From an uncultured Oscillospiraceae bacterium (lineage in GTDB: Bacteria > Bacillota > Clostridia > Oscillospirales > Oscillospiraceae), in assembly GCA_946546815.1 (NCBI GenBank), contig CAMNOL010000008.1:1-42079 (forward strand): DNA of 42,079 nucleotides. Direction: 5' to 3'. The notes beneath the pieces are model-generated. The model did not search any database. It was given only the letters and a program-made list of their open reading frames with translations, and was not told where the DNA came from. Both the position numbers and the translations under genes were made by a program. This document shows, one piece after another, positions 5,607 through 32,600 of this stretch. Every line of letters starts with the position of its first letter. The stretch's first letter is position 1.

Positions 5607-5619
5607 ATGTCGGACAAAT
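5607..5619 (+). promoter_or_regulatory. Operator TGTCGGACA, predicted GntR/FCD site
   Basis: The core palindrome TGTC-G-GACA is at 5608-5616, flanked by A/T, just downstream of the -10. It fits the general GntR-family pattern (GT...AC). Sites of the same form lie at 8752, 8835 and 8871, and a one-mismatch form lies at 12078. A wider dyad TTATGTC/GACATAA (5605-5611, 5628-5634) surrounds its right side. Confidence 0.6.
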
Positions 5620-5667: not shown

Positions 5668-6714
5668 GTGAAACACTTCAGAAGAACCGCAGCGGTGTTG
5701 TTGAGCGCAGCGCTCATGGCCACAAGCCTTACCGCCTGCGGCGGCAGCAACGCTGCCACTGACACAGGCAACAGCGAGTATCCCAAGCTGAACCTGTCCA
5801 TGGCCGTCAACGGCACAGACACGCAGATCGATACCCAGGTAGCACAGTACTTCGCCCAGCTGGTTTCCGAAGGGTCCGGCGGAAACATCGTCATTGACGT
5901 GTTCCCCAACGACACCCTGGCCGGCGGCAACGCCACAAAGGGCATTGAGTACGTCTGCGCCGGTTCTACCGACCTGGCTGCTTATGCCACCAGTACGCTG
6001 GCGGCCATTGAACCGAAAATCAACGTAGCAACCATGCCTTGGACGTTTACCTCCTATCAGCAGGCCACCGAGGTCATCGACACCCAGGGCTATAAGTATT
6101 ACACCGAACTGCTGGCAGCAAAGGATCTGACCTATCTGGGTTCCTTCCACAACGGTTTCCGTCAGCTGACCAACAGCAAGCATGCGGTCACCAAGCCTGA
6201 GGACCTGAAAGGCCTGAAGATCCGAATCCCAGGCTCCAAGATCTACATGACCTTCTGGAACGCGGTTGGCGCCAGCCCCACTTCCATGAGCTGGTCTGAG
6301 GTCTTTACCGCCATCCAGCAGGGCACCATTGACGGCCAGGAAAACGGCGCGCCCATCACTCAGTCCGCCAAGATGCAGGAGATCCAGGATTATATGACCA
6401 TCTGGAACTACTGCTACGACAGCGACCTGATCATCGCCAACTCCCGTGTTTGGGAAGGTCTGGACGACAAGACCAAGGAGCTGCTGCAGGAGAGCGTGGT
6501 GGAAGCCTGCGCCTGGGGCCGCGAAAAGATCGAGACCGAAGAGCAGGAAATCATTGCCTCCTTCCGCGACGACGGAATGCAGGTGGATGTGTTGACCCCA
6601 GAGCAGCTTGCCCCCTTCCAGGAGCTCATCAAGGAGCCCTTTAAGGAAATCAAGGCTGAGTACGGCAAAGAGGCCTGCGAAGCATTCAACATCCAGTGGG
6701 ATGTGGACGAATAA
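5668..6714 (+). CDS. dctP: TRAP transporter substrate-binding lipoprotein, DctP family
   Basis: Extracytoplasmic receptor of a tripartite ATP-independent periplasmic transporter, anchored as a lipoprotein in this monoderm. I chose GTG 5668, not the in-frame ATG at 5638, because GGAGG at 5654-5658 is correctly spaced and the protein then begins VKHFRRTAAVLLSAAL with lipobox LTAC. The mature part shows DctP-family features: LAGGNATKGIEYVCAGSTDL, YLGSFHNGFRQLTNSKHAVTKPEDLKGLKIRIPGS, SWSEVFTAIQQGTIDGQENG. The Arg of the LKIRIPGS segment is the usual contact for the substrate carboxylate, which suggests an acidic ligand. The length (348 residues) is normal. dctQ and dctM follow directly. The exact ligand cannot be read from the sequence. 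Confidence 0.93.
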   Translation: MKHFRRTAAVLLSAALMATSLTACGGSNAATDTGNSEYPKLNLSMAVNGTDTQIDTQVAQYFAQLVSEGSGGNIVIDVFPNDTLAGGNATKGIEYVCAGSTDLAAYATSTLAAIEPKINVATMPWTFTSYQQATEVIDTQGYKYYTELLAAKDLTYLGSFHNGFRQLTNSKHAVTKPEDLKGLKIRIPGSKIYMTFWNAVGASPTSMSWSEVFTAIQQGTIDGQENGAPITQSAKMQEIQDYMTIWNYCYDSDLIIANSRVWEGLDDKTKELLQESVVEACAWGREKIETEEQEIIASFRDDGMQVDVLTPEQLAPFQELIKEPFKEIKAEYGKEACEAFNIQWDVDE

Positions 6715-6732
6715 GGAGGCGCTGAAAAAGAT

Positions 6733-7200
6733 ATGAAACTGATTGAAAACATTGAAAAGGCAGTCTCCGTCGCCAGCGTTGCTGTGATGTCCATCCTGGT
6801 GTTCATCAACGTCATTGCACGTTTCGTGTTCAAAAACTCTCTGGCGTTTTCTGATGAGATTTCCTCTTACCTCTTCATTCTGATGAGCTTTATGGGCAGC
6901 GCCATCGCCGCCCGCCGCAAGGCCCACCTGGGTCTGTCCATTGTCACCGACCGTCTGAGCCCCGCCGGCCGCAAGCGCCTGGGTATGGCCATGTATGCTG
7001 TGTCCGCGTTCTTCTGCCTGCTGATCGTCATCTTCGGCATCCAGATGGTCATGAGTGAGATTCATCTGGGCCAGGAGACTGCTACCATGCAGTGGCCTGA
7101 GTGGATCTACGGCCTGTTTGTTCCCGTCGGCGGCGCGTTCACCATGATCGCCTTCATCGCCGGTATCTTTGACATTGCCAACGAGAAGGAGGAAGAATAA
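6733..7200 (+). CDS. dctQ: TRAP transporter small membrane subunit, DctQ family
   Basis: The 155-residue small integral membrane subunit of the TRAP transporter. It has about four predicted hydrophobic helices: residues 12-32 (VASVAVMSILVFINVIARFV), 43-60, 84-105 and 128-148. AFSDEISSYLFILMSFMGSAIAARRKAHLG is a characteristic DctQ segment. ATG 6733 is preceded by AAGGAGG, 18 bp after the dctP stop. The gene ends one base before dctM, so translation is probably coupled. Confidence 0.93.
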   Translation: MKLIENIEKAVSVASVAVMSILVFINVIARFVFKNSLAFSDEISSYLFILMSFMGSAIAARRKAHLGLSIVTDRLSPAGRKRLGMAMYAVSAFFCLLIVIFGIQMVMSEIHLGQETATMQWPEWIYGLFVPVGGAFTMIAFIAGIFDIANEKEEE

Positions 7201-7201
7201 A

Positions 7202-8491
7202 ATGGTAGGTATCGTATTGCTTGGCGTTTTTGTCGTCCTTCTGGTTCTCGGCGCGCCCATCGCGGTGTGCCTGGGCCTGTCCAGCGTCGCCGCCATTCTG
7301 GTGCAGGGCGCCGGCAAACCCATCGTGGCGGTCATGTCCGTGCTGCCCCGTATCTGTGCGGCTTCCAGCAGCAAATTCGTTCTGCTGGCCATCCCGTTCT
7401 TCATCATTGCCGGTAACGTTATGGAAAAGGCCGGCATCTCCGGCCGACTGATCAACCTGGCTGAAAAGTGCCTGGGCCACATCAGAGGCGGCATGGCTGC
7501 GGTCTGCATCGTGGTTTCCATGTTCTTCGCAGCCATCTCCGGTTCCGGCCCTGCCACCGTCGCAGCGCTGGGCCTGATTATGATCCCCGCTCTGATCAAG
7601 GCCGGGTATCCCGCTTACTTTGCCTGCGCTCTGATGGCCGCCGGCGGCGCCATCGGCGTGGTGATCCCGCCCTCCATTACCTTCGTTGTCTACGGTTCTA
7701 TCGCTGATGCCTCCATCACCAACCTGTTTAAGGCCGGTTTTGTGCCCGGCGTGCTGATGGGCGTTGCCATGATTCTGGTGGCTCTGGTCATCGGCTCCAA
7801 GCTGGACCTGAAGGTTCTGCCCAAGGCCACCGGCAAAGAGCGCTGGGAAGCCTTTAAAGAGGCGTTCCCGGGCCTGATGATGCCTGTTATCATCCTGGGC
7901 GGTATTTATGGCGGTATCTTCACTCCCACCGAGGCAGCGGCTGTCTCTGTGTTCTACGGCCTGGCTGTGGGCATTATCGTCTACAAGGAAATTGATGTGC
8001 GAAAGACCATTGACATCCTGATTGACTCCTGCTCCACCACCGCTACGGTTATGTTCATCACCATGGGCGCCTCTCTGTTCGCCTATGTTCTGACCCGCGC
8101 CCGTCTGGACCTGGCCATCAAGGGCTTTATGCTGGACGTCACCGGCGGCAACTGGATCATCTTCTTCATCATTGTGAACATCGTCCTGCTGATTGCCGGC
8201 TGCTTCCTGGACTCCACCTCCGCTCTGTACATCTTCACCCCGCTGTTTGCCCCTGTCGCCCTGCAGCTGGGCATTGACCCCATCCATCTGGGCGTTGTCA
8301 TGATCTTCAACCTGGCCATCGGTCTGTTCACTCCGCCTGTCGGCGTCAACCTGTATGTTGCCTGCGGCATCGGTGACGTAAAGATCGAAGAGATTTCCAA
8401 GGGCATCGTTCCGCTGGTGCTGGCGGAGATCGGCATGCTGCTGATCATCACCTACATCCCGGCAATTTCCCTGATGTTCGTACCCCACTGA
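7202..8491 (+). CDS. dctM: TRAP transporter large permease, DctM family
   Basis: The 429-residue large transmembrane subunit that carries the ion-coupled transport path. I chose ATG 7202 (MVGIVLLGVFVVLLVLGAP) because GGAGG in the end of dctQ lies 8-12 bases upstream; the longer reading frame from 7169 lies inside dctQ. Family signatures: GVVIPPSITFVVYGSIADASITNLFKAGFVPG, GGIYGGIFTPTEAAAVSVFYG and AIGLFTPPVGVNLYVACGI near the end. About 11-12 hydrophobic segments. It completes a standard dctP-dctQ-dctM operon ending at the terminator at 8582-8606. Confidence 0.95.
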   Translation: MVGIVLLGVFVVLLVLGAPIAVCLGLSSVAAILVQGAGKPIVAVMSVLPRICAASSSKFVLLAIPFFIIAGNVMEKAGISGRLINLAEKCLGHIRGGMAAVCIVVSMFFAAISGSGPATVAALGLIMIPALIKAGYPAYFACALMAAGGAIGVVIPPSITFVVYGSIADASITNLFKAGFVPGVLMGVAMILVALVIGSKLDLKVLPKATGKERWEAFKEAFPGLMMPVIILGGIYGGIFTPTEAAAVSVFYGLAVGIIVYKEIDVRKTIDILIDSCSTTATVMFITMGASLFAYVLTRARLDLAIKGFMLDVTGGNWIIFFIIVNIVLLIAGCFLDSTSALYIFTPLFAPVALQLGIDPIHLGVVMIFNLAIGLFTPPVGVNLYVACGIGDVKIEEISKGIVPLVLAEIGMLLIITYIPAISLMFVPH

Positions 8492-8549
8492 TCCCAGGTT
8501 GCAACTCACACTTTGTGGTAAATCTCCTTTCTCCCCTCTTTTGTCGATG

Positions 8550-8574
8550 CCGGCCGGGTGTTCACCCCGGCCGG
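8550..8574 (+). other. GC-rich hairpin ahead of the operon terminator
   Basis: CCGGCCGGG (8550-8558) pairs with CCCGGCCGG (8566-8574). No T run follows. It stands 8 bases before the intrinsic terminator and may protect the dctPQM transcript end. Confidence 0.6.
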
Positions 8575-8581
8575 GGGAAAG

Positions 8582-8606
8582 AGCCCTGCTTTTGCAGGGC
8601 TTTTTC
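8582..8606 (+). terminator. Intrinsic terminator of the TRAP operon
   Basis: AGCCCTGC, TTTT loop, GCAGGGCT, then TTTT (8602-8605). A perfect 8-bp stem. Confidence 0.9.
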
Positions 8607-8622
8607 TCTTTCTGGCAGGTTT

Positions 8623-8688
8623 ATTTGCCGGCCCTTCGGCCTCCGTCGGGCAAATGGACCGATTGGAAGGCTCCGGCGGGCATGGACC
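8623..8688 (+). repeat. Hairpin plus imperfect direct repeat, unknown role
   Basis: ATTTGCC (8623-8629) pairs with the GGCAAAT of 8649-8655 around an inner GGCC/GGCC stem. The segment 8638-8660 is then repeated imperfectly at 8669-8688 (GGCYTCCG...GGGC...ATGGACC). The 465-bp gap 8492-8956 holds this, the terminator, three operator-like sites and the transketolase promoter. I see no convincing gene in it. Confidence 0.4.
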
Positions 8689-8751
8689 AGCCTGAAAACC
8701 CACTCCAGGGGAGAATAGCAGTCGGTTCAGAGATTCTGGCGCTTGCTCATA

Positions 8752-8760
8752 TGTCTGACA
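8752..8760 (+). promoter_or_regulatory. Operator-like TGTCTGACA, distal site
   Basis: Matches the TGTCNGACA palindrome, 76 bp upstream of the transketolase -35. It could be an auxiliary site for DNA looping, or chance. Confidence 0.4.
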
Positions 8761-8827
8761 AACTGCACAAAAAAGAAAAGCCAATTTTGTGAAAAACGTT
8801 GAAATAAGTTTTTACGCAAAAAAGCCC

Positions 8828-8856
8828 TTGACTTTGTCGGACAATCAGACTATATT
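8828..8856 (+). promoter_or_regulatory. Promoter of the transketolase operon
   Basis: TTGACT (8828-8833), 17-bp spacer, TATATT (8851-8856). The operator at 8835-8843 lies inside the spacer, so bound repressor would block polymerase. Confidence 0.8.
8835..8843 (+). promoter_or_regulatory. Operator TGTCGGACA within the spacer
   Basis: A perfect TGTC-G-GACA palindrome between -35 and -10. Its centre is 36 bp from the next site at 8871-8879. Confidence 0.65.
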
Positions 8857-8870
8857 GAAATCAGTCCAAA

Positions 8871-8879
8871 TGTCCGACA
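8871..8879 (+). promoter_or_regulatory. Operator TGTCCGACA downstream of the -10
   Basis: A perfect TGTC-C-GACA palindrome at about +10 to +20. It has the same position relative to the -35 as the site at the TRAP operon. Confidence 0.65.
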
Positions 8880-8956
8880 AAACAGAAAATAACAAACTGG
8901 CATACTACAAACTGAAATCCGCATCCATTCCAAAAAATCCATGAGGTGATTGCAAA

Positions 8957-9793
8957 ATGAAAGATGTATCCATCAAGGAATTGAAGAACATCGCCACTGA
9001 CCTGCGCATGAAGGTCGTTGACATGATTTACAAGGCTCAGTCCGGTCATCCCGGCGGCTCCCTCTCCGCAGCGGACTTCGTCACCGCAGCGTACTTCAAG
9101 TACATGAACGTGAACCCCCAGGACCCCCGCTGGCCCGATCGCGACCGCATGGTTCTCTCCAAAGGCCATGTCTGCCCCATCCAGTACGCCGCTCTGGCTA
9201 CCCTGGGCTTCTTCCCTGTGGAGGAGCTGGATACCCTGCGCAAGGAAGGCTCCAAGCTGCAGGGCCATCCTTCCATGAACAAGTGCCCCGGCATTGACAT
9301 CTCCACCGGCTCTCTGGGTCAGGGCCTGGCCTGCGCCGTGGGTATGGCTCTGGCCGGCAAGATCGACAAGAAGGACTACAAGGTCTTCTGTGTCGTCGGC
9401 GACGGCGAGTCTCAGGAAGGCGAGATCTGGGAAGCTGCCAACACCGCTCACAAGTACGGCCTGGACAATCTGATCGTCTTTGTGGACTTCAACAACCTGC
9501 AGATCGACGGCACCTGCGACGAGGTCATGCCCAACGGCGACCTGGGCAAGAAGTTCGAGGCCTTTGGCTTTGAGACGCTGGAGATCGACGGCCACGACAT
9601 GGAAGAGATCTGCGCCACTCTGGATAAGTGCTACGCCTCCAAGAACGGCAAGCCCAAGTGCATCTACGCTCACACCGTCAAGGGCAAGGGCGTTTCCTAC
9701 ATGGAGAACTCCTGCGCATGGCACGGCGTTGCTCCCAACAAGGACGAGTACGAGCAGGCTATGGCCGAGCTGAAGGCTCAGATCATCGAATAA
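8957..9793 (+). CDS. Transketolase, N-terminal (TPP-binding) subunit
   Basis: The 278-residue first half of a split transketolase, which moves a two-carbon ketol unit between a ketose donor and an aldose acceptor. ATG 8957 follows GAGGTGAT. Seen: KAQSGHPGGSLSAADF (N-terminal His motif), SKGHVCPIQYAAL, GSLGQGLACAVGMAL, and the thiamine-diphosphate/Mg motif VGDGESQEGEIWEAANTAHKYGLDNLIVFVDFNNLQIDG. The catalytic pyrimidine-domain half is the next gene, 22 bp away. Split transketolases are common in Clostridia and Archaea; some act in special routes (apulose 4-phosphate, sulfofructose) rather than in the pentose phosphate pathway. The TGTCNGACA-controlled promoter and the neighbouring TRAP, SDR and regulator genes suggest a substrate-specific enzyme. 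Codon use is strongly biased to GGC, CTG, ATC and CGC, as in highly expressed genes. Confidence 0.93.
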   Translation: MKDVSIKELKNIATDLRMKVVDMIYKAQSGHPGGSLSAADFVTAAYFKYMNVNPQDPRWPDRDRMVLSKGHVCPIQYAALATLGFFPVEELDTLRKEGSKLQGHPSMNKCPGIDISTGSLGQGLACAVGMALAGKIDKKDYKVFCVVGDGESQEGEIWEAANTAHKYGLDNLIVFVDFNNLQIDGTCDEVMPNGDLGKKFEAFGFETLEIDGHDMEEICATLDKCYASKNGKPKCIYAHTVKGKGVSYMENSCAWHGVAPNKDEYEQAMAELKAQIIE

Positions 9794-9815
9794 TCAGTTC
9801 AGGAGGGACATGACA

Positions 9816-10775
9816 ATGAGCGAATTGAAAAAGATTGCAACCCGTGATGGTTTTGGCGAGGAAATGGTTGCTCTGGGTGCAGAGAACTCCAACGTCATGA
9901 TCGTTGACATTGATATCGGAAAGAGCTGCAAGACCAAGGCATTCCGCGAGGCTTATTCCTCCGAATACCATGACGACAAGAACCAGTACGTCAACGTGGG
10001 CATCGCCGAGCAGAACGGCGCCGGCGTCGCTGCCGGCCTGGCCACCTGCGGCAAGATCCCCTTCGTGGTCACCTATGCGGTGTTCGGCTCCCTGCGTATG
10101 TGCGAGATGATCCGTCAGGAAGTCTGCTACCCCAACCTGAACGTGAAGTTTGCCTGCTCCCACGGCGGCGTGACGCCCGCCAACGACGGCGCCTCCCACC
10201 AGGCCATCGAGGACATGGGCGTGCTGCGCACCATCCCCAACATGACCATAATCATGCCCGCCGACTATGTTTCCGCCAAGAAGCTGACCCGCGCTGCTGC
10301 TGAGACCTACGGTCCCATGTTCCTGCGCTTCACCCGTGACGCTGTGGATCAGATCTATGACGAGAGCGTGGAGCTGGTCATCGGCAAGGCCCATCAGATC
10401 CAGGACGGCAAGGACGTTGCCATCATCGCCAACGGCGACACCGTCCGCCTGGCTGTCGCTGCAGCCAAGGAGCTGGCTGCCAAGGGTATCTCCGCCCGGG
10501 TGCTGGATATGCACACCATCAAGCCCCTGGACGTGGAAGCGGTCACCGCCGCCGTCAACGAGATCGGCAAGATCATCACCGTGGAAGACCACAACATCCT
10601 GAACGGCCTGGGCTCCGCTGTCTGCGAAGTCGTCGCCGAGATGGGCAAGGGCATCGTCAAGCGCATCGGCATCCAGGATCAGTTCGGCGAGTCCGCTCCT
10701 TATGAGCGCCTGCTGGCCAAGAACGGCATTACCGTTGAGAACATCGTCAAGACCGCTGAGGATCTGCAGAAGTAA
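9816..10775 (+). CDS. Transketolase, C-terminal (pyrimidine-domain) subunit
   Basis: The 319-residue second half of the split transketolase, forming the active site with the upstream subunit. I chose ATG 9816 (MSELKKIATRDGFG) over ATG 9810 because AGGAGG at 9801-9806 is then 9 bases away rather than 3. Seen: VDIDIGKSCKTKAFREAY, the glutamate that activates TPP in NVGIAEQNGAGVAAGLA, FACSHGGVTPANDGASHQAIEDMGVLRTIPNM, GPMFLRFTRD, and the C-terminal transketolase domain VLDMHTIKPLD and TVEDHNILNGLGSAV. The length and domain order are standard for the split form. Together with the first subunit it makes a complete enzyme. Confidence 0.93.
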   Translation: MSELKKIATRDGFGEEMVALGAENSNVMIVDIDIGKSCKTKAFREAYSSEYHDDKNQYVNVGIAEQNGAGVAAGLATCGKIPFVVTYAVFGSLRMCEMIRQEVCYPNLNVKFACSHGGVTPANDGASHQAIEDMGVLRTIPNMTIIMPADYVSAKKLTRAAAETYGPMFLRFTRDAVDQIYDESVELVIGKAHQIQDGKDVAIIANGDTVRLAVAAAKELAAKGISARVLDMHTIKPLDVEAVTAAVNEIGKIITVEDHNILNGLGSAVCEVVAEMGKGIVKRIGIQDQFGESAPYERLLAKNGITVENIVKTAEDLQK

Positions 10776-10790
10776 TTCCATGAACCAACC

Positions 10791-10814
10791 GGAGAGGCTG
10801 AACCCGGCCTCTCC
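10791..10814 (+). other. Hairpin after the transketolase genes
   Basis: GGAGAGGC (10791-10798) pairs with GCCTCTCC (10807-10814). The bases after it are not T-rich, so it is at best a weak terminator or a processing/stability hairpin. Confidence 0.5.
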
Positions 10815-10891
10815 TTCCGAAAGAAGCGGCGGAACGAATAGAGACGATTCGCTGTGCAGCTTCCATATTGCATTCTAATTTCTTAGGTCAA

Positions 10892-10952
10892 TTAACAGGG
10901 GGACGGACCATTTAACTGCCAACTCCGACTCCTATCACCTTCCCTCTGTTAA
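10892..10952 (+). other. Long hairpin in the leader of the SDR gene
   Basis: TTAACAGGGGGA (10892-10903) pairs with TCCCTCTGTTAA (10941-10952), 12 bp with one G-T pair, around a 37-nt loop. It ends 6 bases before the ribosome site GGAGG of the SDR gene. It may be a translational control element, an RNA processing site or the operator of an internal promoter. Confidence 0.55.
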
Positions 10953-10971
10953 CTATTTGGAGGTATTTATT

Positions 10972-11730
10972 ATGTTTGATTTTACTAATCAGGTCGTTCT
11001 GATCACTGGTGCCGGTTCTCCCAACGGCATGGGCCGTGTTTTTGCCCGGGATTTTGCCAAGCTGGGCGCTAAGGTCATCCTGGTGGACATCAACCAGGCC
11101 GGCGTTGACGCCAACGTCAAAGAGCTGAGAGACGCCGGCTACAAAGCCGACGGCTATGAGGCCAACCTGACCGATGAGGCCGCTGTCAAGAAGCTGGTCG
11201 CTGATGTCGTCGCTGCTGACGGCCACATCGACGTGCTGATCAACAACGCTGGTATTTCCCAGAAGGTCACCGTCGCTGACATGACCCTGGACGACATGAA
11301 GCGCATCTTTAACGTCAACATGTTTGGCCTGTTCCTGCTGACCCGTGAGGTCTGCGAGGTCATGAAGAAGCAGAAGTACGGCCGTATCGTGCATCTGTCC
11401 TCCGTTTCCGGCAAGCGGGGCGGCGGCGTGTTCGGCGGCGCTCACTACTCCGCTTCCAAGGCTGCTGTTCTGGGCTTCTCCAAGAACCTGGCCCGTGAGG
11501 TCTCCGAGTACGGCATCACCACCAACTGCGTGGCTCCCGGCCTGATCAACACCCACATCTGGAAGAGCATGCCCGCTGAGCAGGCTCAGAAGGTCATCGA
11601 CACCATTCCCATGGGCCGTGCCGGTGAGCCGGAAGAGGTCTCTGCTGCCGTGGTGTTCCTGGCTTCCAAGGAAGCTTCCTACATCACCGGTGAGGAAATC
11701 GACATCAACGGCGGTTCCCACATGGACTAA
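10972..11730 (+). CDS. Short-chain dehydrogenase/reductase (SDR family)
   Basis: A 252-residue classical NAD(P)-dependent SDR. ATG 10972 is 8 bases after GGAGG. Rossmann motif TGAGSPNGMG (residues 13-22), NNAG, catalytic Ser in SSVSG and YSASK (Tyr and Lys). Asp in LVDIN at the end of the second strand favours NAD(H). The C-terminus GEEIDINGGSHMD is typical of FabG-like and sugar-alcohol dehydrogenases. It probably oxidises or reduces a hydroxyl of the compound imported by the TRAP system, for example a sugar acid or polyol. FabG itself is less likely because no fatty-acid genes are near. It shares the strong codon bias of the transketolase genes and probably their transcript. Confidence 0.88.
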   Translation: MFDFTNQVVLITGAGSPNGMGRVFARDFAKLGAKVILVDINQAGVDANVKELRDAGYKADGYEANLTDEAAVKKLVADVVAADGHIDVLINNAGISQKVTVADMTLDDMKRIFNVNMFGLFLLTREVCEVMKKQKYGRIVHLSSVSGKRGGGVFGGAHYSASKAAVLGFSKNLAREVSEYGITTNCVAPGLINTHIWKSMPAEQAQKVIDTIPMGRAGEPEEVSAAVVFLASKEASYITGEEIDINGGSHMD

Positions 11731-11740
11731 TGGGAGTTTG

Positions 11741-11767
11741 TGCAGGCAGGACCTGCTCCTGTCTGCA
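11741..11767 (+). terminator. Hairpin after the SDR gene, possible weak terminator
   Basis: TGCAGGCAGGA (11741-11751) pairs with TCCTGTCTGCA (11757-11767), 11 bp with one G-T pair, 10 bp after the stop. There is no T tract, so it may serve 3-prime end stability instead. Confidence 0.5.
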
Positions 11768-11818
11768 TGAAACCTCCACATTTACTCAGGTAATTCGCTG
11801 AAAAGCGTTTTGCTCCTT

Positions 11819-11910
11819 GCCCCCTCTCTAAAGCGGCGGACAACAGCATAGTGGCAAGCTGCTTGTTCGCCGCGCCCCCTTCTTATCTGATCCCTTCCCG
11901 GAGAGGGGGC
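11819..11910 (+). other. Nested stem structure, candidate structured RNA or terminator
   Basis: A perfect outer stem GCCCCCTCTC (11819-11828) and GAGAGGGGGC (11901-11910) encloses an inner hairpin GCGGCGGACAA (11833-11843) with TTGTTCGCCGC (11863-11873). TCTTTTC follows the outer stem. The 378-bp gap 11731-12108 contains this, the hairpin before it and the regulator promoter, and no gene that I can see. Confidence 0.55.
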
Positions 11911-12045
11911 TCTTTTCAAAAATTTTATATCAGACAAAATACATATCAGGACGGAGATATGAAACCAGACAACCGATAAATAAGAAGAAAATAGAATGGA
12001 GATTGCTGGCAATTCCGGAATAACCCCTGGATTTCGAAATAATTC

Positions 12046-12074
12046 TTGACGGATTGAGAAAACTGTATTATGTT
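12046..12074 (+). promoter_or_regulatory. Promoter of the GntR-rpiB-rpe operon
   Basis: TTGACG (12046-12051), 17-bp spacer, TATGTT (12069-12074), immediately followed by an operator-like site. Confidence 0.55.
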
Positions 12075-12077
12075 ATA

Positions 12078-12086
12078 TGTACGACA
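12078..12086 (+). promoter_or_regulatory. Operator-like TGTACGACA, likely autoregulation
   Basis: One mismatch from TGTCNGACA (A instead of C in the left half), placed at about +1. A further one-mismatch copy TATCAGACA lies at 11928-11936. Confidence 0.5.
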
Positions 12087-12108
12087 AAAGAGAAGGGGGT
12101 CTCCAATC

Positions 12109-12843
12109 ATGCCACAAACTCCGTCTTACCTCAAAAGCCTGAAAAAAGAATCCGTCGTTCAGAGCGTGATCAATGTCCTGACTGACGCCATTCGCACCAA
12201 GGAATTGAAGCCGGGAGACCGTATTCCGCCTGAGCCTGAACTGGCTGCCTCTCTGGGGGTTGCCCGCAGCTCCGTGCGGGAAGCGATTAAAATTCTGACC
12301 TATCTGGGCGTGCTGGAAAGCAAGCGCAGCGAAGGTACCTTCGTCTGCAGCGGCTTTAAAGAAAGCATGATTGATCCTATGGTCTACGGAATCATTCTGA
12401 ATCAGAACTCCACGGAAAACCTGATCGAGCTGCAGGGGATGATTGAATCCGGCTCCATGCGGCTGGCCATTCAGAAATGCACCGACGAGGAGCTGGAACA
12501 ACTGGCGGAAATCATTGAACAGATGCGCGAGGCGGTAAAGGACACAGACGACCCGGTGGAGAGATTCTTCCGGGTTGATAACAGTTTTCACGCTGCCATT
12601 CAGGAAATGGGGAAGAATCCGCTGGTGAAGAAGATCAGCCGTGTCATCGGCACGCTGACCTATGCCATGCGGCATCAGATTGTACAGACCATGCTGGAAA
12701 CCGGACGCTCAGAAGAGCTGATTGCCGTCCATGTCCGCCTGTACGATATTCTGAAAACCAAGGATGCCGGCAATCTGGATGCCGATGTGCTGGCAACCTA
12801 CTTCACGGACGCGCTGAAGGAAGGGGAGCCTGAGGTGAAGTAA
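12109..12843 (+). CDS. GntR-family transcriptional regulator, FadR/FCD type
   Basis: A 244-residue metabolite-responsive DNA-binding protein. I chose ATG 12109 (MPQTPSYLKSLKKESVVQ) because AAGGGGG stands upstream; an in-frame ATG at 12070 falls inside the predicted promoter. Residues 15-85 form the winged helix (ELKPGDRIPPEPELAASLGVARSSVREAIKILTYLGVLESKRSEGTFV). Residues 100-235 form the all-helical FCD effector domain, with FFRVDNSFHAAI carrying the Asp-x3-His metal/ligand motif and HVRLYDIL the later His. FCD regulators usually bind organic or sugar acids. Predicted to control the TRAP, transketolase and its own operon through TGTCNGACA. rpiB follows 27 bp later. Confidence 0.92.
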   Translation: MPQTPSYLKSLKKESVVQSVINVLTDAIRTKELKPGDRIPPEPELAASLGVARSSVREAIKILTYLGVLESKRSEGTFVCSGFKESMIDPMVYGIILNQNSTENLIELQGMIESGSMRLAIQKCTDEELEQLAEIIEQMREAVKDTDDPVERFFRVDNSFHAAIQEMGKNPLVKKISRVIGTLTYAMRHQIVQTMLETGRSEELIAVHVRLYDILKTKDAGNLDADVLATYFTDALKEGEPEVK

Positions 12844-12870
12844 CCAATCCTTACAAAGGAGAACGTTACG

Positions 12871-13347
12871 ATGAAACTTGCAATTGGCAATGACCATACC
12901 GCACTGGAAATGAAGCGGGAGATTATCGACCTGCTGAAGGACAGAGGAATTGAAGTTGTGGATGTCGGTACCAATCAGACCGGCAGCTTCCCCTATGCAG
13001 TCAGCGGCTACCGGGTTGCAAAACTGGTAGCGGAGGGCAAGGTGGACGGCGGCGTGCTGATCTGCGGTACCGGCGTTGGCATTTCTCTGGCTGCAAACAA
13101 GGTCAAGGGTGTGCGCGCCTGCGTGTGCAGTGAGCCTTACACCGCCCGCCTGTCCAAGCAGCACAACAACAGCAACATCATCGCCTTTGGCGCTCGTGTG
13201 ATCGGCGTGGAAATGGCCAAGCTGATCGTGACCGAGTGGCTGGATGCGGAGTTCCAGGGCGGCCGCCATGCCGCAAGAGTGGATATGATCATGGAGATCG
13301 AGGCCACTCAGGGGCTAAAGGCCGCAGAAGAATACAAGGAGGGTTGA
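12871..13347 (+). CDS. rpiB: RpiB/LacAB-family sugar-phosphate isomerase
   Basis: A 158-residue aldose-ketose isomerase; the family standard reaction is ribose 5-phosphate to ribulose 5-phosphate. ATG 12871 follows AAAGGAG. Seen: GNDHTALEMK at the start, catalytic Cys65 in LICGTGVGISLAANK, HNNSNIIAFGARVIG and GGRHAARVDMI. The Asp-His pair and Cys65 fit RpiB. The segment GSFPYAVSGYRVAKLV differs from the usual DYPDYA in RpiB, so a relative acting on another four- to six-carbon sugar (phosphate) is possible. In an operon with the GntR regulator and rpe, and likely part of the same catabolic route as the TRAP and transketolase genes. Confidence 0.88.
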   Translation: MKLAIGNDHTALEMKREIIDLLKDRGIEVVDVGTNQTGSFPYAVSGYRVAKLVAEGKVDGGVLICGTGVGISLAANKVKGVRACVCSEPYTARLSKQHNNSNIIAFGARVIGVEMAKLIVTEWLDAEFQGGRHAARVDMIMEIEATQGLKAAEEYKEG

Positions 13348-13350
13348 GTT

Positions 13351-14001
13351 ATGGCAATGCTGGCACCTTCTGTTTTATCTGCAAATTTTGCACATCTGGA
13401 GCAGGACTGCCGGGACGCGCTGGAGGGCGGCGCAAAGCTGCTCCACTACGACGTGATGGACGGACACTTTGTGCCCAACATCAGCTTCGGCATTCCGGTG
13501 CTGAAAAGCATCCACAAGGCCATGCCCGACGCCTTCTTTGATGTGCACCTGATGATCACCGATCCCATTGACTATGTCCACGCCTTTGCGGATGCCGGTG
13601 CATCCCTGATCAATTTCCATGTGGAGAGCAACTCCGATGCACAGAAGACGCTGGACGCCATCAAGGCGGAGGGCTGCAAGACCGGTATGACCATCAAGCC
13701 GGCTACCCCAGCAGAGGAAGTGTTCCCCTATCTGGATCAGCTGGATCTGGTGCTGGTTATGAGCGTAGAGCCCGGCTTCGGCGGGCAGAAGTTCATGGCT
13801 GATATGCTGGACAAGGTCCGCGCACTGGCCGCAGAGCGGGAGCGCAGGGGTCTGAACTTCCTCATTGAGATCGACGGCGGCATCAACGAGCACACCGGTG
13901 CTCAGGCGACTGCCGCAGGTGTTGACATTTTGGTAGCGGGCAGCACGGCCTTTGCCGTGCCGGATGTGAAAGCCGCCTGCCAGACGCTGTCCAACCTGTA
14001 A
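13351..14001 (+). CDS. rpe: Ribulose-phosphate 3-epimerase
   Basis: A 216-residue TIM-barrel enzyme that interconverts ribulose 5-phosphate and xylulose 5-phosphate in the pentose phosphate pathway. ATG 13351 lies 3 bases after the rpiB stop, and AAGGAGG inside the rpiB end serves it. Motifs: APSVLSANFAHL, metal site HYDVMDGHFVPN, VHLMI, MSVEPGFGGQKF, second catalytic Asp in EIDGGIN, and phosphate site LVAGSTAF. It supplies or consumes xylulose 5-phosphate, the usual transketolase donor, which links it to the split transketolase. Related epimerases for allulose 6-phosphate exist, but the motifs here are those of Rpe. Confidence 0.93.
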   Translation: MAMLAPSVLSANFAHLEQDCRDALEGGAKLLHYDVMDGHFVPNISFGIPVLKSIHKAMPDAFFDVHLMITDPIDYVHAFADAGASLINFHVESNSDAQKTLDAIKAEGCKTGMTIKPATPAEEVFPYLDQLDLVLVMSVEPGFGGQKFMADMLDKVRALAAERERRGLNFLIEIDGGINEHTGAQATAAGVDILVAGSTAFAVPDVKAACQTLSNL

Positions 14002-14106: not shown

Positions 14107-15132
14107 TTACAGAATTTCCCTCAGTTTCTGAATGTCCTCAGGGGTAGTGGACCAGCTGGTGGCAAGGCGCACCACGGTGTGGTCAGCGTCCGGCTTCTCC
14201 CAGAAGCTAAGGGCCACCTGTTGTTTCAGCTCCTCCAGACGCCGGTCCTCCAGCACCACAAACTGCTGGTTGGTGGGGGACTCCAGATAGAAGTGACACC
14301 CCTTTTCCCGCAGCACAGCTTTCAGCTGCTCGGCCATTTCAATGGCGTGCCGGCTGATTTCAAAATACAGCCCGTCGGTGAACAGGGTGTCGAACTGGAC
14401 ACCCAGCAGGCGGCCTTTGGCCAGCAGGGCGCCGTGGAGCTTCACCGTGGTCAGCAGGTGGGCAGGGGCGTTGCCCCGGGGGAAGACCACCGCTTCCCCG
14501 CACAGCGCTCCGACTTTTGTGCCGCCGATGTAAAACACGTCGCACAGGCGGGCGATGTCCTGCAGGGTGACGTCGGTGTGCAGGCTCATCAGTCCGTAGC
14601 CCAGCCGTGCGCCGTCCAGAAACAGGGGAATGTGATAGCGCTTGCATATGGAGGACAGCGCTTCCAAATCCTCCAGGGTGTACAGCGTGCCGTACTCGGT
14701 GGGGTGGGAGATGTACACCATGCCGGGGAATACCATGTGGTCATGGTTGTCGTCGGCGTAAAATCTCTCCAGAAAGCCGTTCAGGGTGTCAGGGGCGATT
14801 TTTCCCTGGGCGTGGGGGACGGTCAGCACCTTGTGGCCGGTGTTTTCAATGGCTCCGGCCTCGTGGGCGTTGATATGGCCGGTCTCTGCCGCCACAACGC
14901 CCTGATAGTGCTGCAGCATGGCGGAAATGACCAGCGCATTGGTCTGGGTGCCGCCGGACAGGAAGGTCACCTGAGCCTCAGCACAGCCGCAGGCCGCCCG
15001 GATTTTCTCCCGGGCGCTCTCACAGTAGCGGTCGCTGCCGTAGCCGGACAGGGGCTCCAGATTGGTCTCCATCAGGCGCTCCAGGATTCTGGGGTGAGCG
15101 CCTGCGATGTAATCGCTTTCAAATGAAATCAT
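14107..15132 (-). CDS. Low-specificity L-threonine aldolase
   Basis: A 341-residue PLP enzyme that splits L-threonine or L-allo-threonine into glycine and acetaldehyde. I chose ATG at 15132 (MISFESDYIAGAHPRILERL) with AAAGGAG upstream; a longer in-frame extension lacks a ribosome site and has no similarity to the family. Seen: GYGSDRYCESAREKI, FLSGGTQTNALVISA, ETGHINAHEAGAIENTGHK, HPTEYGTLY, FLDGARLGYGL, and the PLP lysine Lys206 in YIGGTKVGAL. The length and motif order are normal. It has its own promoter (15206-15178). No linked amino-acid genes are near. Confidence 0.92.
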   Translation of the reverse strand: MISFESDYIAGAHPRILERLMETNLEPLSGYGSDRYCESAREKIRAACGCAEAQVTFLSGGTQTNALVISAMLQHYQGVVAAETGHINAHEAGAIENTGHKVLTVPHAQGKIAPDTLNGFLERFYADDNHDHMVFPGMVYISHPTEYGTLYTLEDLEALSSICKRYHIPLFLDGARLGYGLMSLHTDVTLQDIARLCDVFYIGGTKVGALCGEAVVFPRGNAPAHLLTTVKLHGALLAKGRLLGVQFDTLFTDGLYFEISRHAIEMAEQLKAVLREKGCHFYLESPTNQQFVVLEDRRLEELKQQVALSFWEKPDADHTVVRLATSWSTTPEDIQKLREIL

Positions 15133-15177
15133 CAGCTTGCTCCTTTTGTGTATCATATGGTTCAGAACATTGTGACC

Positions 15178-15206
15178 ATTATAGCCCGGTTTGCTGCAAA
15201 TGTCCA
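15178..15206 (-). promoter_or_regulatory. Promoter of the threonine aldolase gene
   Basis: Minus strand TGGACA (15206-15201), 17-bp spacer, TATAAT (15183-15178). The rest of the 406-bp gap 15133-15538 holds the marR promoter at its right end. Between them I see nothing definite. Confidence 0.7.
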
Positions 15207-15476
15207 TATCACGGATGCTTCTGGACGGACTCAAGCGGTTGGGAAAAGGAGGGCGTGGAGCAGATGGACGATGCCCCCTGGGGCTGGTGCCACAGCAGGA
15301 TGGCGCGTCGTTTCTGAGGGATCCTGCCGCAAAACAGCTCCTGCAAAGTCCTGGCAGAAGAAAAAAGCACAAATCATAGGGAGCGGCAGATGGTGCGAAA
15401 GGCAAAACCGCAGCGCCGGGACCGTTTCGTTTGTGTGACTGAGCCAGAGATTCTGTCGAAAATCAGCGGTTACCTC

Positions 15477-16067: not shown

Positions 16068-18410
16068 ATGACGCTGAAAGACCTGAAAATCGGCCAGTGC
16101 GCCCGCATTGACGCAGTGGGCGGCGAGGGAGCGCTGCGGCAGCACTTTCTGGACATGGGCGTGATTCCCGGCGCGGAGGCCACGCTGGTCAAGCTGGCCC
16201 CCATGGGCGATCCCATGGAGCTGCGGATTCACGGCTACGAGCTGACGCTGCGCCTGGCAGATGCGGACCAGATTGCGGTGACTCTGATCCCGGAGCTGGC
16301 CCAGCCGGAGCACCGGAGGGGCGAGCGCAGAAGTCCGGCTCACCCCGGACTGGGTGAGGAGGGCAAGTTCCATCCCAAGGGGAGCGGCAACCCGCTGCCG
16401 GAGGGAACCAGACTGACCTTTGCGCTGGTGGGCAACCAGAACAGCGGCAAAACCACGCTGTTCAATCAGCTGACAGGCGCCAATCAGCATGTGGGCAACT
16501 TTCCCGGTGTGACAGTGGACCGGAAGGACGGCGCCATCCGGGGTCACAAGGAGACTTCTATCACGGACCTGCCTGGCATCTATTCCATGTCGCCCTATTC
16601 CAGCGAGGAGCTGGTCTCCCGGAACTTTGTGCTCCACGACAAGCCCAAGGGCATCATCAACATTGTGGACGCAACCAACATTGAGCGCAACCTGTACCTG
16701 ACCATGCAGCTGCTGGAGATGGAGATTCCCATGGTGGTTGCGCTGAATATGATGGACGAGGTCACCGGAAACGGGGGTTCTGTGGACGTCAACGAAATGG
16801 AGGCCGCGCTGGGAGTGCCGGTGGTGCCCATCTCCGCCGCAAAGAACCAGGGCATTGACGAGCTGGTGAATCACGCCCTCCATGTGGCATACTATCAGGA
16901 AAAGCCTCTGCGTCAGGACTTCTGCGACAGCACCGAGCAGGGCGGAGCGGTGCACCGCTGTCTCCATGCGGTGGGTCATCTCATCGAGGACCACGCCCAG
17001 CGGGTGGGGCTGCCCAAACGGTTCGCTGCCAGCAAGATCATTGAAGGGGACCAGCTGATCCTGAACCAGCTGGAGCTGGACCAGAACGAGCTGGAGACCT
17101 TGGAGCACATCGTCCTCCAGATGGAAAAAGAGCGCGGCCTGGACCGCAGCGCAGCCATTGCGGATATGCGCTTTTCCTTCATCCAGAAGGTCATCCACCA
17201 GTGCGTGGTCAAGCCCAGGGAGAGCAAGGAACACATCCGCAGCCAAAAGGTGGACAGGCTGCTCACCGGAAAGTACACCGCCATCCCCATGTTCATCCTT
17301 ATAATGGGACTGGTGTTCTTCCTGACCTTCAATCTGGTGGGACCGTGGCTGCAGGACCTGATGGCGGGGGCCATCGCCTGGTTTACCGGGTTGGTGGAGC
17401 GTCTGATGATTGCAGGCGGTGTCAACGAAGTGCTGAGGGGATTCATCATCAACGGCATCTTTGAGGGCGTGGGCAGTGTGCTCAGCTTCCTGCCGCTGAT
17501 TGTACTGCTGTTTTTCTTCCTGTCCCTTTTGGAAGACAGCGGATACATCGCCCGCGTTGCCTTTTTTATGGACAAGATCCTGAGAAAGATCGGCCTGTCC
17601 GGCCGGAGCATCGTTCCCATGCTGGTGGGCTTCGGCTGTTCGGTTCCTGCCGTTATGGCCACACGGACGCTGCCCAGTGAACGGGACCGCAAAATGACCA
17701 TCCTGCTGACGCCCTTTATGAGCTGTACCGCCAAGCTGCCCATCTATGGATTTTTCGCCACTGCGTTTTTCCCCCGTCACGCCGGCCTGATTACATTGGG
17801 GCTGTACCTGCTGGGGATTGCGGTGGGGATTCTGGTGGCCTTTCTCTACAAGGGCACGCTGTTCCGGGGGGAAGCAGTTCCCTTTGTCATGGAGCTGCCC
17901 AACTACCGGATGCCCAGTCCCCGCAGCGTGGCGCAGCTGCTGTGGGAGAAGGCGAAGGACTTCCTGCAGAAGGCGTTTTCCATCATCCTCATCGCCACGA
18001 TGGTGGTGTGGTTCCTTCAGAGCTTTGATCTTCATCTCCGCCTGGTAGAGGATTCCAGCCAGAGTATTCTGGCGATGGTTTCCGGCCTGCTGGTGCCTCT
18101 GTTCAAGCCGGTGGGGCTGGGAGACTGGCGCATCTGCACCTCTCTGCTCTCCGGATTCATGGCCAAGGAGAGCGTGGTTACCGTTCTAAAGGTGCTGTAT
18201 GCAGACGGCGTCAACGCTGCCATGAGCGGGCTGAGCGCTGCCTCTCTGCTGGTCTTCAGCCTGCTGTACACCCCCTGTGTGGCGGCAATCGCCTCCATCA
18301 AGCGGGAGCTGGGCGGCAAATGGGCCTTCGGCCTGGTGCTGTGGCAGTGCGGCATCGCGTGGGTTGCTGCGCTGATTGTGCGGATGATCGGAATGTTGCT
18401 GGGCTTCTGA
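16068..18410 (+). CDS. feoB: FeoA-FeoB fusion, ferrous iron transporter
   Basis: A 780-residue inner-membrane Fe(II) transporter with its SH3-like partner FeoA fused to the N-terminus. ATG 16068 follows AGAGGAGAG. Residues 1-75 are FeoA-like (LKIGQCARIDAVGGEGALRQHFLDMGVIPGAEATLV). Residues 76-115 are a charged linker. The G domain starts at about 117: G1 GNQNSGKT (122-129), G2 Thr in GVTVD, G3 DLPG (167-170), G4 NMMD, G5 ISAAK. The membrane part (about 400-780) has Gate motifs, with GCSVPAVMATRTL and CTAKLPIYGFFATAFF. FeoB usually stands beside separate FeoA; fusions occur in some anaerobes. A Cys-rich FeoB-associated protein and an HMA protein follow. Confidence 0.96.
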   Translation: MTLKDLKIGQCARIDAVGGEGALRQHFLDMGVIPGAEATLVKLAPMGDPMELRIHGYELTLRLADADQIAVTLIPELAQPEHRRGERRSPAHPGLGEEGKFHPKGSGNPLPEGTRLTFALVGNQNSGKTTLFNQLTGANQHVGNFPGVTVDRKDGAIRGHKETSITDLPGIYSMSPYSSEELVSRNFVLHDKPKGIINIVDATNIERNLYLTMQLLEMEIPMVVALNMMDEVTGNGGSVDVNEMEAALGVPVVPISAAKNQGIDELVNHALHVAYYQEKPLRQDFCDSTEQGGAVHRCLHAVGHLIEDHAQRVGLPKRFAASKIIEGDQLILNQLELDQNELETLEHIVLQMEKERGLDRSAAIADMRFSFIQKVIHQCVVKPRESKEHIRSQKVDRLLTGKYTAIPMFILIMGLVFFLTFNLVGPWLQDLMAGAIAWFTGLVERLMIAGGVNEVLRGFIINGIFEGVGSVLSFLPLIVLLFFFLSLLEDSGYIARVAFFMDKILRKIGLSGRSIVPMLVGFGCSVPAVMATRTLPSERDRKMTILLTPFMSCTAKLPIYGFFATAFFPRHAGLITLGLYLLGIAVGILVAFLYKGTLFRGEAVPFVMELPNYRMPSPRSVAQLLWEKAKDFLQKAFSIILIATMVVWFLQSFDLHLRLVEDSSQSILAMVSGLLVPLFKPVGLGDWRICTSLLSGFMAKESVVTVLKVLYADGVNAAMSGLSAASLLVFSLLYTPCVAAIASIKRELGGKWAFGLVLWQCGIAWVAALIVRMIGMLLGF

Positions 18411-18450
18411 CCGCTGCATCTGTCCGCAATCGTACGGCATTTTCTCAACA

Positions 18451-18557
18451 GCTGCAATCCTCGAAACCATTGCAGCAGCGCAGGAATGTCCAGAACTTGG
18501 CTGTCGCCGTTGACAGGCGTCGGCCTGCGCTCTCCGTCTTGCTCTGGACGTTCCTGC
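18451..18557 (+). repeat. Two tandem hairpins between feoB and the Cys-rich gene
   Basis: First GCTGCAAT (18451-18458) with ATTGCAGC (18469-18476). Then a 15-bp stem with one G-T pair joins 18480-18494 to 18543-18557 (GCAGGAAYGTCCAGA), with a small inner hairpin CTGTC/GACAG. No T tract follows. The 197-bp gap is otherwise empty. It could be a REP-like element, an RNase-processing site or an mRNA-stability structure. Confidence 0.6.
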
Positions 18558-18607
18558 ATCGCTTTCGTTGTCTCACTGTTTTTAAATTTTGCTCTAAGGT
18601 GAAAATA

Positions 18608-18805
18608 ATGTTGAATATCTGGGATATTATGTTAATTGCCGCTGTTGCAGTGATTTTTTTCTTCGCACTGCGCAAGACCATCTCTGACACCCGAAAGGGG
18701 AAGGGGTGTCTGAGCTGCGGCGGCAGCTGCGACAGCTGCTCCTCCCCGGTGTGCAAAGCCAGGAGGGAGGAGTTCAGAAGGCGCAAGAGAGAAGGAAACC
18801 TGTAA
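18608..18805 (+). CDS. FeoB-associated Cys-rich membrane protein
   Basis: A 65-residue protein. ATG 18608 follows AAGGTGA. Residues 3-22 form one membrane helix (NIWDIMLIAAVAVIFFFALR). A cytoplasmic tail follows with CLSCGGSCDSCSSPVC, five cysteines in a small loop, then a basic end. This is the usual pattern of FeoB-associated Cys-rich proteins, which probably help ferrous iron reach or leave FeoB, though the mechanism is not settled. It stops one base before the next gene, so the two are likely coupled. Confidence 0.88.
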   Translation: MLNIWDIMLIAAVAVIFFFALRKTISDTRKGKGCLSCGGSCDSCSSPVCKARREEFRRRKREGNL

Positions 18806-31172: not shown

Positions 31173-31208
31173 TCGGCCCGGAAGCATCCGACCAATTTGT
31201 TTTCACCG

Positions 31209-31231
31209 GAGGCCGGTGCTTCGCCGGCCTC
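31209..31231 (+). other. Hairpin between the dehydrogenase and MFS genes
   Basis: GAGGCCGG (31209-31216) pairs with CCGGCCTC (31224-31231). No T tract. Possibly an mRNA-processing or stability hairpin within the operon. Confidence 0.55.
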
Positions 31232-31278
31232 TGTTGAAGAAATACTCTATCAATAAGAAAAGAAGAGGTATGAAACAC

Positions 31279-32496: not shown

Positions 32497-32518
32497 TCCC
32501 TCCAAACTGAACAACCTA

Positions 32519-32556
32519 ACAAATTCCCTGCCGCCAATGGTGGCGGGGAATTTTCA
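32519..32556 (+). terminator. Terminator-like hairpin between MFS and aroD
   Basis: AAATTCCCTGCCGCC (32521-32535) pairs with the arm ending GGCGGGGAATT (to about 32552), then TTTTC. It may reduce aroD transcription or end a shorter transcript. Confidence 0.65.
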
Positions 32557-32600
32557 CAACAACGCTTTTTTAATCACTTTTTTAAAGGAGATGCAATGTT

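What the first reader, a model, noticed from the sequence alone, without database searches (positions are those of the whole stretch)
5668..14001. Possible kinase-free, transketolase-based catabolic pathway
The block holds a TRAP importer (typical for carboxylates and other acids), split transketolase, NAD-type SDR, FCD regulator, RpiB-like isomerase and Rpe, under shared operators, but no sugar kinase, aldolase or dehydratase. TRAP transport does not phosphorylate its cargo. Known precedents (the sulfofructose transketolase route, with a split transketolase and an RpiB/LacAB-type isomerase) show that a kinase is not always required. A scheme that fits: import of a sugar acid or sulfo-sugar, oxidation to a ketose-type donor by the SDR, transfer of C2 units to an aldose phosphate by the transketolase, isomerisation of the shortened product by the RpiB-like enzyme, and entry of xylulose 5-phosphate into central metabolism through Rpe. 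The substrate is unknown.
Basis: inference. Interest (0 to 1): 0.75.

Follow-up and report, generated by a model that had tools for sequence, protein, structure and literature searches.

The report
Transketolase cassette for an imported acid
A gut bacterium carries a co-regulated gene set that seems to import an organic acid, probably a sugar acid, oxidise it once and let a specialised transketolase pass two of its carbons into central metabolism without a sugar kinase; similar sets occur in related gut bacteria with different dehydrogenases, but the substrate is still unknown.

Summary
Window 5668-14001 carries a TRAP importer, split transketolase (TK), NAD-type SDR, FCD regulator, RpiB and Rpe, with palindromes TTGTCNGACAA before the TRAP and TK genes. 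It recurs: of 79 usable loci (window included), 66 have TRAP and 59 an FCD gene within 8 kb of the TK, and 71 one of four unrelated dehydrogenase families (SDR, ketopantoate-reductase type, GFO/IDH, Zn-ADH). SDR and ketopantoate-reductase types swapped repeatedly on the TK tree. Some cassettes use other transporters (GntP, MFS, TctA/TctC). The cassette TK is a distinct clade: F434 to Tyr and VGED to PAND beside the catalytic Asp, phosphate residues kept. The genome has a second, ordinary TK-Rpe set and a second RpiB. Some relatives add RpiB, Rpe, PFK, FBA or a TIM-like gene. Best reading: import of a hydroxy acid, probably an aldonate; one oxidation to a ketose-like donor; C2 transfer to glyceraldehyde 3-phosphate giving xylulose 5-phosphate plus a short aldehyde acid. 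RpiB and Rpe look like ordinary pentose-phosphate enzymes, not tools for the shortened product. A sulfosugar is unlikely, as the sulfo-TK RAFDR motif is absent. Substrate and chain length remain open; nothing was assayed.

The parts
5607..5617 (.). operator-like palindrome ATGTCGGACAA before DctP
5668..6714 (+). TRAP solute-binding protein DctP, lipoprotein-type signal by eye; carboxylate triad R175, R196, N236 (numbered in the 5638 frame)
   Evidence: triad Arg152/Arg173/Asn213 of 4P47 from PMC11668362 passages
6733..7200 (+). TRAP small permease DctQ
7202..8491 (+). TRAP large permease DctM
   Evidence: ATG read
8751..8761 (.). operator-like palindrome ATGTCTGACAA
8834..8844 (.). exact operator TTGTCGGACAA, one of three exact sites in the genome
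8870..8880 (.). operator-like palindrome ATGTCCGACAA, 87 bases before TK
8957..9793 (+). transketolase N-terminal subunit (thiamine diphosphate binding)
9810..10775 (+). transketolase C-terminal subunit with signature R-S-Y-H / PAND
10972..11730 (+). short-chain dehydrogenase, NAD type by eye (YxxxK; Asp after the second strand)
11927..11938 (.). weak operator-like site between SDR and regulator
12077..12088 (.). degenerate operator before the regulator
12109..12843 (+). GntR/FCD regulator (open frame from 12070)
   Evidence: start inferred
12871..13347 (+). ribose-5-phosphate isomerase B
   Evidence: TIGR01120 175.9 bits, cut-off 138.65
13351..14001 (+). ribulose-phosphate 3-epimerase
   Evidence: TIGR01163 247.1 bits, cut-off 212.6

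Best explanation
A sporadic catabolic cassette for an imported hydroxy acid, most likely an aldonate (sugar acid). TRAP brings the acid in unphosphorylated. The SDR oxidises one secondary hydroxyl with NAD to give a HOCH2-CO-CHOH-R keto acid. The dedicated split transketolase moves the C2 unit to glyceraldehyde 3-phosphate, giving xylulose 5-phosphate and leaving a short aldehyde acid (glyoxylate from a C4 acid, tartronate semialdehyde from C5, a C4 semialdehyde from C6). Rpe and RpiB, and in some relatives PFK, FBA and a TIM-like protein, turn xylulose 5-phosphate back into triose phosphate, which renews the acceptor. The FCD protein senses the acid or an intermediate and controls the TRAP and TK promoters. 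Shown: gene content, conserved neighbourhood, TK signature, clustered palindromes, a paralogous ordinary set. Inferred: direction, acceptor, oxidation step, acid class, role of the regulator. Unknown: the substrate.
For: Of 79 usable loci (window included; the best 80 of 297 relatives were kept, and L087 and L095 dropped out), 66 have TRAP genes and 59 an FCD gene within 8 kb. Dehydrogenase within 5.5 kb: SDR 40, KPR type 17, GFO/IDH 11, SDR+Zn-ADH 3, none 8, 7 of those 8 beside a contig end. On the TK tree supported branches force at least 6 changes for KPR and 8 for SDR. Lactonifactor (L061) has two cassettes in tandem, one SDR, one Zn-ADH. Transporter swaps: GntP in L082, over the gluconate-symporter subfamily cut-off; an MFS in L071 closest to the D-galactonate transporter subfamily but under its cut-off; TctA/TctC by the distant L111. 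DctP keeps Arg/Arg/Asn, invariant in 21 aligned sequences. TK signature: of 91 hits at 55% identity or more all but one cut hit show Tyr at F434, and 89 of those 90 a Pro at the VGED Val; 8 of 9 hits below 55% show Phe and VGED. Helpers in same-strand runs: RpiB 7, Rpe 5, PFK 8, second PFK 8, FBA 7, TIM-like 2 of 79; PPi-PFK and FBA can replace transaldolase in clostridia (PMC7029132, passages). Precedent: an E. coli TktA variant reported to turn 5-keto-D-gluconate into tartaric semialdehyde (PMC12016104, passages).
Against: No activity, growth or ligand data. DctP matches many TRAP binders at similar Z, so the ligand is not named, and the same residues bind sulfonates. The SDR passes only two broad subfamily cut-offs (FabG-like and glucose 1-dehydrogenase) and no equivalog. 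The engineered TktA that works better on 5-keto-gluconate lost R358, H461 and R520, which the cassette TK keeps. L093 is not cut and has TK without any of the dehydrogenases counted. L111 has a 2-hydroxyacid dehydrogenase and no called SDR, KPR or GFO, which would also fit glycerate. 49 of 79 loci have no operator-like site in the cassette. The window genome lacks both glycerate-kinase families and has a transaldolase-family gene, so the helper argument is weaker there.
Confidence: 0.6

Rival explanations
1. Hydroxypyruvate version: the cassette oxidises D- or L-glycerate (or a near relative) to hydroxypyruvate, the classic irreversible transketolase donor (recalled), giving xylulose 5-phosphate and CO2.
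For: KPR-type and, in L111, 2-hydroxyacid dehydrogenases belong to families that act on C2 of 2-hydroxy acids; a glycerate kinase over its cut-off in L030 and glycerate-kinase-like genes under their cut-offs in L037 and L077 sit beside KPR or GFO cassettes; a LarA-like protein, far below the curated cut-offs, in L080.
Against: Glycerate is more simply used by glycerate kinase, so TK would seem pointless; a lactonase-family gene follows the SDR in L039 and, by clustering, L049, one close pair.
Confidence: 0.15
2. Sulfosugar transketolase pathway (SqwGH type): import of a sulfonate, TK on sulfofructose, RpiB-like SqwI on the shortened product.
For: Split TK with an RpiB/LacAB protein in the same block; the TRAP arginines also bind sulfonates (PMC11668362, passages).
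Against: Sulfo-TK has RAFDR at the head-group site (PMC11659671, passages); the window TK has R-S-Y-H-R. The RpiB passes the ordinary RpiB cut-off and lies in the run of only 7 of 79 cassettes. No specific search for sulfosugar genes was made.
Confidence: 0.06
3. An ordinary, separately regulated pentose-phosphate module with a neighbouring TRAP system.
For: Rpe and RpiB are canonical; the TK residues for phosphate are kept.
Against: A housekeeping TK-TK-Rpe group and a second RpiB exist elsewhere; the TK clade has its own signature; TRAP, TK and a dehydrogenase lie together across several families, and some share palindromes.
Confidence: 0.1
4. A polyol or unphosphorylated ketose pathway: the SDR oxidises a sugar alcohol to a ketose that TK cleaves.
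For: SDR and Zn-ADH families include polyol dehydrogenases; TK can use free ketoses (both recalled).
Against: Carboxylate triad in DctP and acid-type replacement transporters.
Confidence: 0.09

Closest known systems
Sulfoglycolytic transketolase pathway (SqwGH, SqwI; PMC11659671, passages)
   Same: Unphosphorylated donor, split TK, glyceraldehyde 3-phosphate as acceptor, xylulose 5-phosphate as carbon product, no kinase (for the cassette these are inferred, except the split TK and the lack of a kinase gene)
   Different: There an isomerase makes the donor and the TK carries RAFDR; here a dehydrogenase fills that place and the TK carries R-S-Y-H-R
Transketolase cleavage of 5-keto-D-gluconate to tartaric semialdehyde (PMC12016104, passages)
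   Same: TK cleaving a keto sugar acid
   Different: Engineered or proposed for tartrate synthesis with R358I/H461S/R520Q; not a catabolic cassette with importer and regulator, and the cassette keeps those residues
Carboxydothermus split transketolase (6yaj/6yak)
   Same: Two-subunit TK, best solved relative of the C-subunit
   Different: VGED and Phe where the cassette has PAND and Tyr
D-apulose 4-phosphate transketolase AptAB (recalled; no paper found)
   Same: Split TK in a catabolic cluster
   Different: Uses a kinase; donor is phosphorylated (recalled)
Tetronate pathways with DUF1537 kinases (recalled; search listing only)
   Same: Catabolism of small sugar acids
   Different: Kinase and decarboxylating steps; no such kinase among the block genes

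Membership tests
TRAP transporter (DctPQM) | three subunits DctP, DctQ, DctM | tested here: met
TRAP transporter (DctPQM) | Arg/Arg/Asn carboxylate site in DctP | tested here: met
   R175, R196, N236 align with 4P47 Arg152, Arg173, Asn213
Split transketolase | separate N and C subunits with TK domains | tested here: met
Housekeeping pentose-phosphate transketolase | Phe at F434 and VGED before the catalytic His, as in the C19 copy | tested here: not met
   window R-S-Y-H-P-A-N-D-H-R; C19 copy R-A-F-H-V-G-E-D-H-R
Sulfofructose transketolase SqwGH | RAFDR head-group motif | tested here: not met
Sulfofructose transketolase SqwGH | activity on sulfofructose | not testable with these tools
   needs an assay
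Aldonate-cleaving transketolase pathway (proposed) | TK uses an oxidised aldonate as donor | not testable with these tools
   needs an assay
Aldonate-cleaving transketolase pathway (proposed) | a dehydrogenase linked to TK and an acid importer | tested here: met
   window; relatives: dehydrogenase in 71 of 79, TRAP in 66 of 79; L093 an uncut exception
DUF1537 tetronate pathway | DUF1537 kinase in the block | tested here: not met
   no such family among the block genes
Apulose 4-phosphate transketolase AptAB | adjacent apulose kinase (recalled) | tested here: not met
   no kinase in the block

The most novel reading that the evidence does not exclude
A new kinase-free route for aldonates in gut Firmicutes: oxidation erases the stereocentre next to the CH2OH end, so swapping the dehydrogenase (SDR, KPR, GFO/IDH, Zn-ADH) lets one transketolase clade serve different epimers of a sugar acid, all entering metabolism as xylulose 5-phosphate plus a short aldehyde acid. 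By my hand-drawn stereochemistry, D-erythronate and L-threonate (a vitamin C product) would give the same C4 donor with the right configuration; for C5, pairs such as D-arabinonate and L-xylonate.
Probability: 0.45. Interest if true: 0.78.

Novelty: new variant of a known kind. Interest (0 to 1): 0.62.

Why it matters
If right, it adds a general logic to sugar-acid catabolism: one oxidation plus transketolase, no ATP spent on activating the acid. It would make clusters of transketolase, TRAP and SDR genes in gut bacteria readable, and gives a signature (Tyr at F434, PAND) to find them. Its substrates could include diet- or ascorbate-derived acids. In the listings of nine paper searches of an open-access library I saw no title or abstract start that describes this cassette; most subscription papers are not held, and I read passages of only four papers.
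Full report
What is there. The window is contig C8 of a 1.86 Mb assembly in 145 contigs, 93.6% complete. The nearest TK relatives come from records titled Eubacterium sp. UBA3720, Dysosmobacter and Oscillibacter.

Shared control. TTGTCNGACAA with at most one mismatch occurs 46 times in the genome, less than the backwards control (90), so it is no genome-wide signal. Four sites lie in the two promoter regions of this block (5607; 8751, 8834, 8870), a clustering that I estimate by hand, after the fact, at about 1e-4. In the related loci the palindrome stands before TK in many Oscillospiraceae-like loci and before the KPR gene in five Mogibacterium loci (L041, L044, L046-L048); in L059 and L060 it stands before KPR and TK, in L060 also before DctP, and just inside the called start of a PFK-family gene. 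Overall there are 62 hits (9 of them in coding sequence) in 502,635 cassette bases against 17 in 795,247 other bases; 49 of 79 loci have none in the cassette. So the operator belongs to part of the family only.

A conserved cassette. The scan for the TK N-subunit found 297 relatives and kept the best 80 loci; 78 of them and the window had a usable TK call (L087 and L095 dropped). Of these 79, TRAP genes lie within 8 kb in 66 and an FCD gene in 59. A dehydrogenase lies within 5.5 kb in 71: SDR in 40, a ketopantoate-reductase type (KPR) in 17, GFO/IDH in 11, SDR plus Zn-ADH in 3; none in 8. Of those 8, seven are beside a contig end; L093 is a real exception. SDR does not occur with KPR or GFO in this count; counted by same-strand runs, Zn-ADH appears in six loci, L061, L080 and L089 besides the three. 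One member of each family was scanned; the rest are assigned by clustering. The SDR cluster includes distant ones (32% identity in L098 and L099).

Swapping. On a tree of joined TK subunits (68 of 79 loci plus the housekeeping pair) GFO is one clade, but supported branches force at least 6 changes for KPR and 8 for SDR. So unrelated dehydrogenases replaced each other while the TK stayed. Lactonifactor longoviformis carries two cassettes in a row, one with SDR and one with Zn-ADH, each with a regulator, TRAP and TK. An oxidation step tied to the TK is the simplest reason. My inference: after oxidation the stereocentre is gone, so one TK can serve epimers.

What is carried in. DctP has the Arg/Arg/Asn set that binds carboxylates in this family (R175, R196, N236; PMC11668362, passages). 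Sulfonates can use the same set. Other cassettes have a GntP-type gluconate symporter over its subfamily cut-off (L082), or an MFS closest to the D-galactonate transporter subfamily but under its cut-off (L071; by clustering L078 and L083). The more distant L111 has TctA and TctC. A lactonase-family gene follows the SDR in L039 and its near twin L049, and a LarA-like protein, far below the curated cut-offs, lies by L080. Together this points to hydroxy acids, most likely sugar acids. It does not give the chain length.

The transketolase. The cassette TK differs from the housekeeping copy on C19 (52% and 48% identity for the two subunits). In 100 tblastn hits 78 of the 86 at 64% identity or more read R-S-Y-H-P-A-N-D-H-R at ten positions; the other eight are one-residue variants or cut hits. 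Five at 55-64% keep Tyr and Pro. Of nine below 55%, eight read Phe and VGED; the ninth is L111. The place names follow yeast and E. coli TK and are partly recalled. Sulfo-TK reads RAFDR at the phosphate site (PMC11659671, passages); the cassette keeps Ser and His, as expected if the acceptor is still a sugar phosphate. Against a simple parallel, the TktA variant improved for 5-keto-gluconate lost three of these phosphate residues (PMC12016104, passages). Tyr and PAN beside the catalytic Asp could suit an acid donor; that is inference.

The helpers. RpiB and Rpe in the window pass the cut-offs of the ordinary enzymes; in same-strand runs RpiB occurs in 7 and Rpe in 5 of 79 loci, PFK in 8, a second PFK type in 8, FBA in 7, a TIM-like protein in 2. 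PPi-dependent PFK and FBA can replace transaldolase in clostridia (PMC7029132, passages). These are the kinds of enzyme needed to turn xylulose 5-phosphate into fresh glyceraldehyde 3-phosphate, so they argue for the direction proposed. The window genome has a housekeeping TK-TK-Rpe group, a second RpiB and a transaldolase-family gene elsewhere.

The leftover. A glycerate kinase over its cut-off lies by L030, and glycerate-kinase-like genes of another family, under their cut-offs, by L037 and L077. Genes of one 2-hydroxyacid dehydrogenase cluster lie by seven loci (scanned in L030 and L077). They fit a C3 leftover (C5 acid) or a hydroxypyruvate route. The window genome lacks both kinase families, so there the leftover must go elsewhere, perhaps reduced and excreted. 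Within the acid reading I give C5 about 35%, C4 25%, C6 20%, glycerate or other 20%.

Spread. In the class survey (E 1e-80) only the own genome and G318 (68%) of 391 reach 65% identity in the sorted match list; in the family survey 7 of 200 genomes, own included, match at E 1e-120. It is a sporadic, accessory trait.

Judgement. The finding is real and conserved, and co-regulation is likely; the kinase-free transketolase idea is strengthened; the sulfosugar and RpiB parts are not. Function rests on inference until an assay is made.

Noticed in passing
own genome C11:288-298 (L010): One of only three exact TTGTCNGACAA sites lies about 170 bases before a thiamine transporter gene (Thia_YuaJ); the cassette TK needs thiamine diphosphate. 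Could be chance.
   Followed up: partly
own genome C4:39364-39639 (L008): Two operator-like sites stand before a run with V-type ATPase genes.
   Followed up: partly
window 30276-33380: Shikimate/quinate-type dehydrogenase, MFS transporter and type I 3-dehydroquinase in a row, perhaps a plant-acid use operon.
   Followed up: partly
window 25900-27402: Glycerol kinase GlpK, 12 kb from the cassette; only a 2-mismatch operator-like match (25754) before it.
   Followed up: partly
window 14107-15405, minus strand: Beta-eliminating-lyase/threonine-aldolase-like gene beside Rpe; by clustering, homologues lie near the cassette in L081 and L097.
   Followed up: partly
L041, L045-L048, L035: PdxA-like dehydrogenase genes near the cassette, next to a 2-hydroxyacid dehydrogenase in L041, L045 and L046; role unclear.
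   Followed up: partly
L111:987-6675: Distant TK relative (R-S-Y-H-P-G-N-D) beside TctA/TctC, an Asp/Glu-racemase-like protein, a 2-hydroxyacid dehydrogenase and an FCD regulator: perhaps a sister cassette with another acid importer.
   Followed up: partly
window 16068-18805: FeoA-FeoB fusion ferrous iron transporter with an associated small protein.
   Followed up: no
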